From contig CALEDJ010000021.1 of NCBI GenBank assembly GCA_937951485.1, forward strand, positions 1-18,352: a DNA stretch of 18,352 bases, given 5' to 3'. The notes below the pieces were generated by a model, which was given only the letters and a program-made list of their open reading frames with translations, ran no database searches and had not been told where the DNA came from. The stretch is from an uncultured bacterium. Lineage in GTDB: Bacteria > Hydrogenedentota > Hydrogenedentia > Hydrogenedentales > CAILVY01. Numbering within the stretch: position 1 is the first letter of the stretch; each line of letters starts with the position of its first letter. This document shows positions 3,249-18,128 of this stretch, in pieces. The position numbers and the translations under genes were made by a program.

Positions 3249-3712
3249 ATGACACGCCTGATGGAAATCGCGGAGGAAGCGGTGCGGCGCATTGTCGAGG
3301 AGGTGCAACCGCTGCGGGTGGTGCTTTTCGGGTCCGTCGCGCAAGGGGAGGCGGGACCGGACAGCGATCTGGAAGACTGGTTGAGCCGTGCGCAAGGAAA
3401 ACTGGCATTGGCGCAACAGCCTTTGCCGCCGGGCGGATATTGGGAAGACCTGTGCTTTATGGCCCAGCAGGCGGGGGAACTCTCCATAAAAGCGGTCCAT
3501 CAACGCCATGGATGGCAATTCCCCTTCATCCATGATTTGCGCAAATTGCTGGACGGCCTGGAGGCAAAGGGTTTGCCATTCCGGAACATCTTTGCGAGGC
3601 GGAACGGCTGACGATCTACGTGACCCAACTGCGTTATCCAGGCACGACCGGGTTTGTAACGCAGGAAGAACATGCGGCCATGCTGGCCATCGCGGAAACG
3701 CATTACGCCTGA
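3249..3712 (+). pseudogene. MNT-HEPN toxin-antitoxin remnant: fused by deletion, then frameshifted
   Basis: Residues 1-42 are the start of a minimal nucleotidyltransferase (MntA-type), including VVLFGSVAQGEAGPDSDLE. It stops right after the GSx10Dx(D/E) site, where the second acidic residue is Glu rather than Asp, and the rest of the MNT fold is missing. The frame runs straight on into a HEPN domain: DWLSRAQGKLALAQ, then CFMAQQAGELSIKAVHQRHG and FPFIHDLRKLLDGLEAKG. In the starting frame translation ends at 3611 with an unrelated tail. In the -1 frame, from about 3567 to a TGA at 3710-3712, the expected HEPN end appears (FAIPEHLCEAERLTIYVTQL, then RYPGTTGFVTQEEHAAMLAI). So one base is missing or a -1 shift is needed. 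Normally MNT (antitoxin) and HEPN (RNase toxin) are separate adjacent genes. This looks like an internal deletion that joined them in frame, followed by decay. A functional fusion made by ribosomal frameshifting is the less likely alternative. Confidence 0.8.
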
Positions 3713-8771: not shown

Positions 8772-8868
8772 GTCGTTTTACGTGCGGCGCGCCGGGGTCT
8801 TTGGTGGTCGAGGGCGCGGGAATGCGCCGCCGGCTGCCAATCCCGTGTGATCGCTGGAGACTTTTGTG

Positions 8869-11379
8869 ATGACCGATGCTTCCTCAGCCCCTTGCCGGAC
8901 ATGTTCCGGGGCAGGGCGTTCGCGTATCCTGTGGGCGGTGGCGCTGTTTGCGCTCTTTGCGTTTCATGCCGGCATGAACGCCTGGTGGTTGATGGAGGAC
9001 AACCACACCATCCGCACGGATGAAGAAGGGCACATGCATTGGGCGCGCAAGTATTACGAGGCAATGTTTCTGGACAGGGAGGCCACGCTGATGCAGCGGG
9101 CGGTCGCGTTTGCCCAGGTCAAGCCGGGGAATCCGGCGCATCCGCCCCTGCTTCACATCATCGGCGCAGTGACTATCGCCCTCTTCGGTTACGACATTGA
9201 CACCCTGGCGGCGGTCAATACGGCCATGTTCCTGCTCACCCTGATCGGATGCCTGTTGATCCTGATCCGTTTTCTGGATCGCTGGAGCGCCCTGTTCGCG
9301 GTTTTTGTGATTGGTTTTTCGCCGATTGTCTATGCGTCTTCGCGGCATTTCATGACCGATTATGTTTCGCTGGCGATTGTCACATGGGCGTTGTATGCGC
9401 TGATCCGCACCGAGCGTTTCCGGAACACAGGCTGGGTCTTCGTCTTCGCCGTGCTCAACGGCCTGGGCTTTCTGGCGCGCAGCACGACGTTTCTTTACTA
9501 TCTCATTCCATGCTTGTTTGTGGTGCTGGCGGGCTGGGTCGCGGCGCTTACGGAAGGTCGGCGTGGTGAATGGCGCACGGTGCTGCTCAATTGTCTGCTG
9601 GCCGGCGTGGTGACAACGGGCGTGTTTTCCCCCTGGTACTTCAGACATCTGGATGATTTCTACCATTACTGGGTGAATGTTCACGCCGGCGGCGTGGGCG
9701 GGCCGGTGGCCCTGCTCCAGCCGGAAACGCCGCGCCCCGCTGCACGGCAGACACCGGAAGATGATTTCAGCAATGTTCCGCAGCCGGTTGTTTCAGATAA
9801 CCAGGCCCAACAAAGCCGGGCAACGATAGCCTCCGCGCCCGCGGCGGCTGCGCCGCCCCCGCCCCGGGAAGCACGGACGCAAGACAGCGCCGAAACGCCG
9901 CCGAAACGCCGTGGCATATGGGAGCAGATCATATCGCCGCGCGTGAATTGGGGACGTTACCCCATGCATGCGGTCCATAACGCTGTTTTCCTGCCGATCC
10001 TGCTGCTGTGTCTTGTCGGCATGGTGCTGGCCTTTCTGATGCCGAAATACCGATCATTTGAGGCGTTCATGCTGCTGTTGTGGCTGCTGGGTTCCTGGGT
10101 TTGCATGACCATCACGGTGAAATACGCCACCGCACGCTACATCTTGCCGGCGGCTCCGGCAATGGGCGCATTTGCCGCGCTGGCTGTGATGGCCCCCGGC
10201 AACAAAATTGCCCGGCGACTCTGCATGGGCATATTCACGCTCTTGCTTCTGTTCCAATACGGCAATTTGACAGTGCGTTCTTACGGTCCCCTGGCTGAGT
10301 GTTCGCCGGGGGGACTGACCGTCTGGAAGGACTATCTCACCCTGGGGTTCTCCTACACGCACCTGTCGGCACCGGAAAAGGCCAATTTCAAGGACAGGAT
10401 TTTCCTGGCCATGGTGAATGCCGAGCGGCAACGCGAGTTTCCAAAGGGAGAATGGGCGAATTACCTGCGCCTGCGCATGCGCGGCATGGAGTTTGATGAA
10501 GTGCACTACTGGCGTGATCTGCCGGGGGGAAAACCCAACCCCTTCCGCAGGAAAGAAATCCCCTCGGACAAATTGCCTCTGCGCCGCCTGCGCAGCATCG
10601 GATTCGCGCATGACGCGGAGGCATTGCTGCCCGCGCTCGACAATGCCGACTATATTGTCTATGCGTTGGACATGCCTGAAGAGGAACTCGAAGGGCGGTG
10701 GGTACTCTTCTTCCACGAACAGGGTTTTCAGCCGATTGATCGTCTCGAATGGCCCGGCTTCGGCGAAGTGCCCGACCGCGTCTATGGCGTGTTGGCGCGC
10801 ATGTCGGAGGCCAAAACAGTCAATATTGAAAACCGGGAGGACGTGGACGCACTGAACCTGTTCCAACTCTATGAGTTGCGGCTTGTGCTGCGCAACAGCA
10901 CGGACCCGCGACATGAAGCGATGAAAGCCTATGTGGAACAGCGCTTCGAGGAAGAAATCGCCGCGCTGGCCCCGCAGCCACAGGAAATCAATGAATATCT
11001 CACCTTTCTCTGGGTGGACGTGGCGCCCTTGGGAGATGACTGGTATGCCTTCCGCTTCATCTTCAGGGTCAACAAGGGGATTGACGCCGACTACCGCATC
11101 TTTTTCCACGGGAAAGTGGATGAATCGCAGGTCCATCTGTTGCCGCCCAACATGCGCGAACAGGGCTTTATGATGTGGAATTTTGATCCGACGCCGCCGA
11201 CTTCCCAGTGGCCCGAAAATGATTATGTCTTTCTGACACACCGCATTCGCGCCGAACGGATCAATTATGGACTGACAATAGGTTTCTATTCCGGCAGCAA
11301 ATATTTCGGCAACCCCGTATCGCTGGGCGAAATAGACTTCGGATCGTTGCACCCTGCCGTCCCGGCGCGGACCCCTTGA
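8869..11379 (+). CDS. GT39/ArnT-like polytopic membrane glycosyltransferase
   Basis: The protein has 836 residues. After a short Cys-containing N-terminus comes TM1 (about 20-41). The first outer loop then holds an acidic motif, RTDEEGHMHWARKYYEA (Asp51-Glu53, His55), in the position where GT39/ArnT/PMT enzymes carry their catalytic Asp/Glu. About seven more helices run to residue 258 and four more lie at about 370-462, followed by a soluble C-terminal region of about 360 residues. These enzymes move a sugar from a polyprenyl-phosphate donor to protein or lipid on the periplasmic face. Donor and acceptor here are unknown. Odd: between the two helix groups (about 279-348) is a Pro/Ala/Gln-rich, probably disordered stretch including SAPAAAAPPPPREA. 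ATG 8869 is preferred over the in-frame GTG 8866 because GGAG lies at 8856-8859. The stop is 9 bp before the MoxR gene, so the two are probably co-transcribed. Confidence 0.8.
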   Translation: MTDASSAPCRTCSGAGRSRILWAVALFALFAFHAGMNAWWLMEDNHTIRTDEEGHMHWARKYYEAMFLDREATLMQRAVAFAQVKPGNPAHPPLLHIIGAVTIALFGYDIDTLAAVNTAMFLLTLIGCLLILIRFLDRWSALFAVFVIGFSPIVYASSRHFMTDYVSLAIVTWALYALIRTERFRNTGWVFVFAVLNGLGFLARSTTFLYYLIPCLFVVLAGWVAALTEGRRGEWRTVLLNCLLAGVVTTGVFSPWYFRHLDDFYHYWVNVHAGGVGGPVALLQPETPRPAARQTPEDDFSNVPQPVVSDNQAQQSRATIASAPAAAAPPPPREARTQDSAETPPKRRGIWEQIISPRVNWGRYPMHAVHNAVFLPILLLCLVGMVLAFLMPKYRSFEAFMLLLWLLGSWVCMTITVKYATARYILPAAPAMGAFAALAVMAPGNKIARRLCMGIFTLLLLFQYGNLTVRSYGPLAECSPGGLTVWKDYLTLGFSYTHLSAPEKANFKDRIFLAMVNAERQREFPKGEWANYLRLRMRGMEFDEVHYWRDLPGGKPNPFRRKEIPSDKLPLRRLRSIGFAHDAEALLPALDNADYIVYALDMPEEELEGRWVLFFHEQGFQPIDRLEWPGFGEVPDRVYGVLARMSEAKTVNIENREDVDALNLFQLYELRLVLRNSTDPRHEAMKAYVEQRFEEEIAALAPQPQEINEYLTFLWVDVAPLGDDWYAFRFIFRVNKGIDADYRIFFHGKVDESQVHLLPPNMREQGFMMWNFDPTPPTSQWPENDYVFLTHRIRAERINYGLTIGFYSGSKYFGNPVSLGEIDFGSLHPAVPARTP

Positions 11380-16402: not shown

Positions 16403-17824
16403 CTATGTGAGCCGTCGGGCGCGGTGGATCGGCCACCACAACGCCACGGCCACCCCGGCAATATCCTGAGCCGCCACCCAGCCCAGGATGCGGCTGTCCA
16501 GCGCCTCGTGCGCATCGGGGTCCTGGGGCGCATCCGACAGAATGAAGTAGTGTCCCTCCGGGACCGCGCAGTGGTTGCGGTTGCGTGACCTGCCATAGAC
16601 GGCGTCAGGGTTATCCGTCGCAAAGTGCGGCGCGGCGAGGGCGGCGGGATGGTCCAACGGCGCGCCGTCTATGTACAGGCGTCCTTCCGTGATGGCGACT
16701 TTTTCGCCTGGCAGCCCCGCGATGCGTCCCATCAGATGACCCACTTCTTTCGCCCGGTCCCCCTGAGGATGGTAGATGACCAAATCGCCGCGCAGCACGC
16801 GGTTCCGCCGCCACAGCCACCAGCGGGTGAAGGGGATGCGCAGCCCCAGCGGCCAGAATGCGACGAAGTAGTGGTTGACGCCCGGCCCGTCGGGGTTGCG
16901 CGCGCCCCAGGACCGCCCAAGGAAGAGCCGAGCAAAAAGCCACAGCAATGTCAGCGTCACGAGCGCGCGCCACCACAGCGTTTTCGAGAAGCCGGTGAAG
17001 TCGCGCCAGCGCGTCGGCGGCCACCAGATGCAGGCCACGCGCCCCACGATGTTTTCATTCGGCAGCCAACCGAAATGTCGGCCGTCGGCGCTGTTCGCGC
17101 TGTTATCGCCGAGCACAAGGTAATGTCCCGCGGGCACCACGGAATACTCATCCTCCGGACGCACCCCGTATATCATGCCGCTGAATACGCTGGGAGAGGA
17201 GGTGTAAAAGGCATCCTGGGGCATGGAATCCGGCAATTCCAGCGCAACGCCATTCGCATATACTTTGCCGTCGCGGATTTGGATGCGCTCGCCCGGCATG
17301 CCGACGATCCGCTTGACCAGCGTCTTGTGCACGGCGTCTTTGCGCACCGCCTTGAACACGACAATATCCCAGCGTTGCGGGTCGGCCCCATGCCAGATGC
17401 GCTTGTTCATGAAGGGGTAACGGACGCCGTATATCCATTTATTCACAAAGACCCTGTCGCCTCGGCCGAAACGGTCATCGCCGTGCAGGGTCGGCTCCAT
17501 GGAACCCGACGGGATGCGGTAGGGTTCCGCGATGGGCCAGCGAATCATGAGCGCCACCCCGAGCGCCACCGCTTCGCTCTTCAGCCATTCCACCGCCTGC
17601 GCACGCGACATGCCGCTGAACAGACAGCCATGCCCGCCGAGTGCCGCCACCACAATCCCCGCCCACCAAATCCAATCCACGCCGCCCGGCCGCAACCGCT
17701 GGCTCCACATCACCAGCCAGATGCCGGCGGCAATCAACAATGCGCCCCCCACGAAGAAAACGTATCGTCGGACGGTTCCGCCCGTTTCGGCGCGTTGCGC
17801 TTCTTTCTTGTCCTGTTTCGGCAT
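16403..17824 (-). CDS. lepB: Signal peptidase I with a second, inactive peptidase-like domain
   Basis: The protein has 473 residues, long for the family. Two membrane segments (about 21-40 and 49-70) are followed by EWLKSEAVALGVALMIRWPI. The active domain then shows box B YRIPSGSMEPTL (nucleophile Ser108), box C QRWDIVVFK, box D LVKRIVGMPGE (general base Lys171) and box E GHYLVLGDNSANSADGRHFG (about 233-252). After another membrane segment (about 283-302) the fold repeats: RGDLVIYHP (345-353), HLMGRIAGLPGE (363-374) and GHYFILSDAPQD, then ALDSRILGWV (424-450). This copy has Gly366 where Lys is needed and no SGSM motif (RIPFTRWW instead), so it cannot be catalytic. The first half should cleave signal peptides on the outer face of the inner membrane. 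The second copy may bind substrate or partner proteins, which is inferred. ATG 17824 was preferred over GTG 17893; neither has a good Shine-Dalgarno. Confidence 0.92.
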   Translation of the reverse strand: MPKQDKKEAQRAETGGTVRRYVFFVGGALLIAAGIWLVMWSQRLRPGGVDWIWWAGIVVAALGGHGCLFSGMSRAQAVEWLKSEAVALGVALMIRWPIAEPYRIPSGSMEPTLHGDDRFGRGDRVFVNKWIYGVRYPFMNKRIWHGADPQRWDIVVFKAVRKDAVHKTLVKRIVGMPGERIQIRDGKVYANGVALELPDSMPQDAFYTSSPSVFSGMIYGVRPEDEYSVVPAGHYLVLGDNSANSADGRHFGWLPNENIVGRVACIWWPPTRWRDFTGFSKTLWWRALVTLTLLWLFARLFLGRSWGARNPDGPGVNHYFVAFWPLGLRIPFTRWWLWRRNRVLRGDLVIYHPQGDRAKEVGHLMGRIAGLPGEKVAITEGRLYIDGAPLDHPAALAAPHFATDNPDAVYGRSRNRNHCAVPEGHYFILSDAPQDPDAHEALDSRILGWVAAQDIAGVAVALWWPIHRARRLT

Positions 17825-18128
17825 TATCGAAGAAGGTCCCGGTCTCGGTGTTGCCCGGCGCGCGAGCGCCGGCAATGAACGCAATTTCACCACAGCGTCA
17901 AGGTGGAATCCGCGCCGCTGGGAGGCCCGTCAAGCGGTGGTCGCAACGGCGGCGGTGCCGCCAAGCATAGCCCATAAAGAACGAAGAAATAAACACCGGC
18001 CCCCAATCCGCGCGTAATAGAGGCCGGCATCATGTTGCACTTCTAAAAGGGCAAACACCGCGGAATCATTTTCAGGCATGCGTTTCGAGCACCAGCGCAT
18101 GTATCTCTTGACCAAAACGTCAAATGAG

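What the first reader, a model, noticed from the sequence alone, without database searches (positions are those of the whole stretch)
16403..17824. Signal peptidase I with a tandem, catalytically dead second peptidase domain
Residues 1-270 carry all SPase I boxes (Ser108, Lys171). Residues 345-466 repeat the box C, D and E order (RGDLVIYHP, HLMGRIAGLPGE, ILSDAPQD plus LDSRILGW) after an extra membrane segment, but Lys is replaced by Gly366 and the SGSM loop by RIPFTRWW. A fused inactive copy could select substrates or hold a dimer. It fits a cell with many exported proteins carrying special C-terminal tails.
Basis: partly seen in the sequence, partly recalled or inferred. Interest (0 to 1): 0.6.

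Follow-up and report, generated by a model that had tools for sequence, protein, structure and literature searches.

The report
Signal peptidase with fused dead twin
In a little-known bacterial phylum, the enzyme that trims export signals off secreted proteins carries a second, catalytically dead copy of itself, which has been kept for the age of the phylum and probably sits on the other side of the membrane.

Summary
D1 (residues about 78-275) is an intact type I signal peptidase (SPase I: Ser108, Lys171). D2 (about 304-473) is a true second SPase domain: Pfam S26 E 1.2e-17, HHalign D1-D2 E 6.7e-45, best structural match the dead SPase homologue SipA (Z 11.6). The genome is Candidatus Hydrogenedentota. 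A tandem SPase occurs in 37 of 38 high-quality genomes of the phylum. In 118 genomes outside it with an S26 match, no open frame held two complete S26 matches.

D2 is uniformly inactive: Lys became Gly in 67 of 68 copies, the Ser site is not conserved, and the glycine that must face Lys became Ser/Ala/Thr. One correction: RIPFTRWW does not replace the SGSM loop. It matches YPFMNKRIW after box C; the SGSM loop is deleted or eroded.

D2 arose once, before the split into lepB and the window-type paralogue. It is under purifying selection (dN/dS about 0.13-0.31; D1 0.02-0.18), so it is not a relic. One conserved transmembrane segment separates the domains, so D2 is predicted cytoplasmic: a docking or regulatory role is likelier than selection of cleavage sites. 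The 'special C-terminal tails' link is unsupported.

The parts
16403..17824 (-). Tandem signal peptidase gene, 473 aa (ATG start; the open frame runs on upstream, 496 aa from a GTG at 17893)
17606..17761 (-). N-terminal TM1 (about res 22-40) and TM2 (about res 52-73), a hairpin; the N-terminus is K/R-rich, so predicted cytoplasmic
   Evidence: hydropathy; topology inferred
17531..17587 (-). TM3 (about res 80-98), the canonical SPase anchor before box B
   Evidence: alignment with other SPases
17000..17593 (-). D1, active SPase I domain (res about 78-275): SGSM with Ser108, Lys171-Arg172, GDNS 239-242, DGR 247-249
16913..16999 (-). Conserved linker FTGFSxTxWW (res 276-285) and TM4 (about res 285-304), with invariant Arg299 and nearly invariant Arg304
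16406..16915 (-). D2, inactive SPase domain (res 304-473): box C equivalent HYFVAFWPLGLRIPF 318-332, RGDLV 345-349, Gly366 in place of Lys, Ser429 in place of the glycine facing Lys, DSR 443-445, WWP 463-465; no catalytic Ser loop

Best explanation
This is an active, membrane-anchored type I signal peptidase (D1, outside the inner membrane) to which a second SPase domain (D2) was fused once, in an ancestor of Hydrogenedentota. D2 lost its catalytic dyad and became a non-catalytic accessory domain. Shown: homology and fold of D2, loss of the dyad in every copy, single origin, phylum-wide retention, purifying selection. Inferred: a single transmembrane helix (TM4) joins D1 to D2, so D2 lies on the cytoplasmic face, an inside-out SPase fold. 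There it most likely acts as a docking or regulatory scaffold that holds the peptidase at the export machinery or at the cytoplasmic end of signal peptides, while D1 alone cleaves. The cytoplasmic placement is the step I hold at about 0.6; the exact partner is unknown.
For: D2 is an SPase domain. The D2 model's best structural matches are SPases, with the dead homologue SipA 4n31 first (Z 11.6, 2.9 A over 123 residues; Foldseek E about 1e-5). Dead: Lys to Gly in 67 of 68 (Arg in 1); the Ser column is mixed, while D1 keeps Ser in 85 of 86 and Lys in 86 of 86; the E. coli Gly272 equivalent, invariant in D1 because a side chain would clash with Lys (PMC4049620), is mostly Ser/Ala/Thr in D2. Retained: in 37 of 38 genomes at least 90% complete and at most 5% contaminated the D2 profile matches at E 1e-35 or better. 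Selection: D2 dN/dS 0.13-0.31 in pairs with dS up to about 1.3. Single origin: D2 of both paralogues is one clade, SH-aLRT 98. Topology: one hydrophobic segment between the domains, at least as hydrophobic as the canonical anchor TM3 (mean Kyte-Doolittle 1.77 against 1.52); single-domain lepB paralogues end with the same FTGFS-WW helix followed by an Arg-rich tail (5.3 K/R in 15 residues against 2.7 before it), which by the positive-inside rule is cytoplasmic.
Against: In the window-type proteins the charges around TM4 are symmetric (2.4 against 2.0 K/R), so the positive-inside rule alone does not orient it; TM4 could be a re-entrant or interfacial helix, leaving D2 outside. The full-length structure model is poor (pLDDT 46.9) and shows nothing about domain placement. 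D2 evolves several times faster than D1 in most pairs (median pairwise identity 34% against 68%), and in some family f10 members its C-terminus is eroded, so the constraint is moderate. No partner or substrate is known.
Confidence: 0.55

Rival explanations
1. D2 lies outside the membrane next to D1 (TM4 is not a true span) and works as a pseudo-dimer partner or substrate-gating module.
For: The same fold as D1 allows a pseudo-dimer; the charges around TM4 are symmetric; the dead SipA works outside the membrane with other proteins (PMC4049620).
Against: TM4 is as hydrophobic as a real anchor on average and matches the terminal helix of single-domain lepB, which ends in an Arg-rich tail. The Ser-bearing loop that helps to form the substrate groove is deleted in most D2 copies of the window type.
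Confidence: 0.28
2. D2 is a decaying relic of the duplication, with no function beyond a stable C-terminus.
For: D2 is far less conserved than D1 (34% against 68% median identity), it was lost from lepB in several families, and its C-terminus is eroded in some f10 members.
Against: D2 is kept in 37 of 38 high-quality genomes; dN/dS is well below 1 in all usable pairs; about 20 D2 columns are at least 85% conserved, with Gly327, Pro331, Gly366 and Gly457 invariant in the A-type set.
Confidence: 0.12
3. D2 is a second active peptidase that uses a different nucleophile or general base.
For: Box E Asp-Ser-Arg and the general fold are kept.
Against: The Lys site is Gly in 67 of 68, the Ser loop is shortened or substituted, and no other Ser, Cys or Lys is conserved at either site. 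Conserved Ser444 lies in box E, where active SPases carry Ser or Gly.
Confidence: 0.03

Closest known systems
Bacterial type I signal peptidase LepB (MEROPS S26A; Pfam PF10502; E. coli 1B12/1T7D)
   Same: D1 carries all boxes with Ser and Lys; D2 has the same fold and boxes C, D and E
   Different: LepB is a single domain. Large LepB-like frames (477-639 aa) seen in other phyla are one S26 domain split by an insert, not a tandem.
Streptococcus pyogenes SipA (4N31), inactive SPase homologue required for pilus polymerisation (PMC4049620)
   Same: Closest solved structure to the D2 model. The same Lys to Gly change and the same loss of the glycine that faces Lys.
   Different: SipA is a stand-alone extracellular protein with the full Ser-loop (Asp in place of Ser) and serves sortase pili. 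D2 is fused to an active SPase, has a deleted or eroded loop, sits behind an extra membrane segment, and belongs to an unrelated phylum.
Staphylococcus aureus SpsA/SpsB pair (from my own knowledge; not tested here)
   Same: An inactive SPase homologue encoded beside an active one
   Different: Two separate proteins, not one polypeptide

Membership tests
Type I signal peptidase (S26A), D1 | Ser-Lys dyad in boxes B and D | tested here: met
   Ser108 in SGSM, Lys171 in KRIVG; conserved in 85 of 86 and 86 of 86 first domains
Type I signal peptidase (S26A), D1 | Boxes C and E, N-terminal membrane anchor, family profile above cut-off | tested here: met
   PF10502 E 2e-60, TIGR02227 E 6e-60; TM3 before box B
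Type I signal peptidase (S26A), D1 | Cleaves signal peptides | not testable with these tools
   No assay
Type I signal peptidase (S26A), D2 as an active peptidase | Ser-Lys dyad | tested here: not met
   Lys to Gly in 67 of 68, Arg in 1; Ser site not conserved or deleted
Peptidase_S26 fold family, D2 as an inactive homologue | Family profile above cut-off and SPase fold | tested here: met
   PF10502 64.8 bits (cut-off 22.9), TIGR02227 71.5 bits (cut-off 47); structure match to SipA Z 11.6 and E. coli SPase Z 10.8
SipA-type inactive SPase | Loss of Ser and Lys with loss of the facing glycine | tested here: met
SipA-type inactive SPase | Extracellular location, role in sortase-dependent pilus assembly | not tested
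   Sortase was not searched for; D2 is predicted cytoplasmic, so the function is not claimed to be shared

The most novel reading that the evidence does not exclude
A signal peptidase with SPase folds on both faces of the membrane: an active one outside, and an inverted, dead one in the cytoplasm that binds the export machinery or the cytoplasmic end of signal peptides and couples translocation to cleavage.
Probability: 0.4. Interest if true: 0.7.

Novelty: new variant of a known kind. Interest (0 to 1): 0.5.

Why it matters
Inactive SPase homologues are known as separate proteins; I found no report of one fused to an active SPase as a phylum-wide trait. SPase I is often taken to act without regulation. 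A conserved dead domain, predicted on the cytoplasmic face, would be a handle on how signal peptide cleavage is coupled to export. It also shows a repeated route to an SPase pseudoenzyme (Lys to Gly plus loss of the facing glycine), seen in Streptococcus SipA and here.

Tried and rejected
(1) Substitution of the SGSM loop by RIPFTRWW: rejected, wrong register. (3) More relatives for a deeper alignment from viral contigs: none. (4) Tandem SPases outside the phylum: the best outside matches to the D2 profile are ordinary single-domain SPases (a 523-aa frame in L112 is one SPase with a spurious upstream extension); 120 genomes searched, 118 with an S26 match, no tandem listed; plasmids: no place covers more than 52% of the query in the rows listed. 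The control genomes, including Bacteroides, were reported only as ringing, so their architecture was not read here. (5) PEP-CTERM link: one hit. (6) Literature on tandem or pseudoenzyme SPases, or on Hydrogenedentota SPases: nothing relevant apart from SipA. (7) Positive-inside rule on TM4 of the window-type proteins: inconclusive.

Full report
WHAT IS THERE. The interval 16403-17824 holds a gene on the minus strand, 473 codons from ATG 17824. The window is one whole contig (C21) of a 4.5 Mb genome (contig length). Its nearest named relatives are Candidatus Hydrogenedentota.

TWO SPASE DOMAINS. PF10502 matches the whole protein at E 2e-60, and residues 323-473 alone at 1.2e-17, over the curated cut-off; TIGR02227 gives 7.2e-20 for that piece. 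D1 and D2 align to each other directly (30% identity, E 1e-24) and as profiles (E 6.7e-45). Its best structural matches are SPases: SipA 4n31 Z 11.6 (2.9 A, 123 residues), E. coli SPase Z 10.8; Foldseek gives 26 SPase or SipA chains ahead of anything else.

CORRECTION OF REGISTER. In several alignments D2 LGLRIPFTRWWLW sits on D1 YGVRYPFMNKRIW and E. coli YGIKDPIYQKTL, the stretch after box C. The piece that would hold SGSM lies before it (residues about 305-317), and is shortened by roughly 10-14 residues in most families. In families f4/f5 it is still almost full length: L036 SWRVPEAGVSDSLAKGDHV lies without a gap on its own D1 PFKIPSESMVPTLKVGDRI, with Gly at the Ser site (read). So the loop was first substituted, later deleted, or both happened in different lines.

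D2 IS DEAD EVERYWHERE. Over 68 second and 86 first domains: the Lys site is Lys in 86 of 86 D1, and Gly in 67 and Arg in 1 of 68 D2. The Ser site is Ser in 85 of 86 D1 (one gap) and a mixture in D2; seven D2 rows show Ser in that column, in a loosely aligned loop and always without Lys. The glycine of GDN (E. coli Gly272) is Gly in 86 of 86 D1, and mostly Ser, Ala or Thr in D2. [quoted passage not shown] Structural parts are kept: Asp-Ser-Arg of box E, RGDLV, the box D glycines, the VPxGxYF stretch, WWP.

DISTRIBUTION. The D2 profile matches at E 1e-35 or better in 37 of the 38 genomes of the phylum that are at least 90% complete and at most 5% contaminated; the exception, G026, is in 660 contigs. 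In four of these (G006, G029, G042, G048) the only tandem seen is of the B type described below. In the 386-genome relatives set, matches at 1e-35 or better all lie inside the phylum; the best outside one is 1.4e-33, and the outside matches checked by hand (L112-L116) are ordinary single-domain SPases. In 120 genomes of other families searched with PF10502, 118 have a match and none of the listed rows shows two complete S26 matches in one open frame; several frames of 477-639 aa there are one domain split by an insert.

HISTORY. Neighbourhoods show two paralogues. B is lepB, next to lepA (own genome C16, L099; also L104, L105, L111; Pfam). A is the window gene's type, often directly downstream of lepB and followed in several genomes by a HemN/HemW-like radical SAM gene and a Leu/Phe-tRNA transferase gene; in the window it stands alone beside an aconitase gene. 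In f4/f5, B also has a degenerate D2. In the tree all D2 form one clade (SH-aLRT 98), all D1 of the phylum another (92), with outside SPases on the D1 side of the drawn root. The single-domain lepB group (100) lies inside B. The simplest reading is one tandem duplication or fusion in an ancestor, then the A/B split, then loss of D2 from lepB in several families. Long D2 branches make the exact root uncertain, and a 'quick' tree was used.

SELECTION. In close pairs D2 dN/dS is 0.13-0.31 for pairs with dS up to about 1.3, with less reliable 0.41 and 0.21 at higher dS. D1 is 0.02-0.07, with one value of 0.18. D2 is constrained, more weakly than D1, so it is not a relic.

TOPOLOGY. The window protein has TM1 and TM2 (a hairpin after a K/R-rich N-terminus), TM3 (the canonical anchor) and TM4 between the domains. 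TM4 begins with the invariant FTGF element, and in the profile alignment it lies on TM3 without a gap, so it is also the former anchor of D2. Single-domain lepB proteins end with the same FTGFSxTWWG helix and an Arg-rich tail such as RHFLRERRRKQ (5.3 K/R after against 2.7 before). With D1 outside, as catalysis requires, one span puts D2 in the cytoplasm. This is inference: the window-type proteins have symmetric charges around TM4, and no reliable full-length model could be made.

MECHANISM. Shown by sequence: D1 with an intact dyad, D2 dead and conserved. Inferred: D2 is a membrane-apposed, non-catalytic domain. With the Ser-bearing loop gone, one wall of the peptide groove is missing, so choosing cleavage sites by the normal groove is unlikely. 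A docking or regulatory role on the cytoplasmic side is my preferred reading (0.55), an outside pseudo-dimer or gate the main rival (0.28), a relic 0.12.

NOVELTY. Inactive SPases are known (SipA here; SpsA from my own knowledge). Fusion to an active SPase across a whole phylum, with a membrane span between, was not found in the literature library, which is incomplete. I call it a new variant of a known kind.

Noticed in passing
window 3249-3611 (+): A 120-aa frame joins the start of an MNT-type nucleotidyltransferase (PF01909, res 13-41) directly to a HEPN domain (PF05168, res 42-109); it looks like an internally deleted MNT-HEPN toxin-antitoxin pair.
   Followed up: no
L041 3001-4403 and L097 (the same contig, G001:C281): In the close relative (MAG LaPlata_bin-1517) the tandem SPase is split over two overlapping frames by a frameshift within D1; assembly error or pseudogene not resolved.
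   Followed up: partly
L030, L035, L073, L078, L081-L085, L087, L090-L092: In families f4/f5 a second SPase (type B, the lepB paralogue) also carries a degenerate second S26 domain, often with lost box E; a second dead-domain lineage.
   Followed up: yes
L028, L032, L033, L034, L037: In family f10 the C-terminus of D2 is eroded (WWP or DSR lost) while D1 stays intact.
   Followed up: partly
own genome C3:44536-45096, C16:184567-185364, C31:14975-15409: Three further SPase I genes, all with Ser and Lys, making four in this genome.
   Followed up: partly
window 8866-11379 (+): An 837-aa protein with a PMT_2 glycosyltransferase domain and a long unassigned C-terminal part.
   Followed up: no
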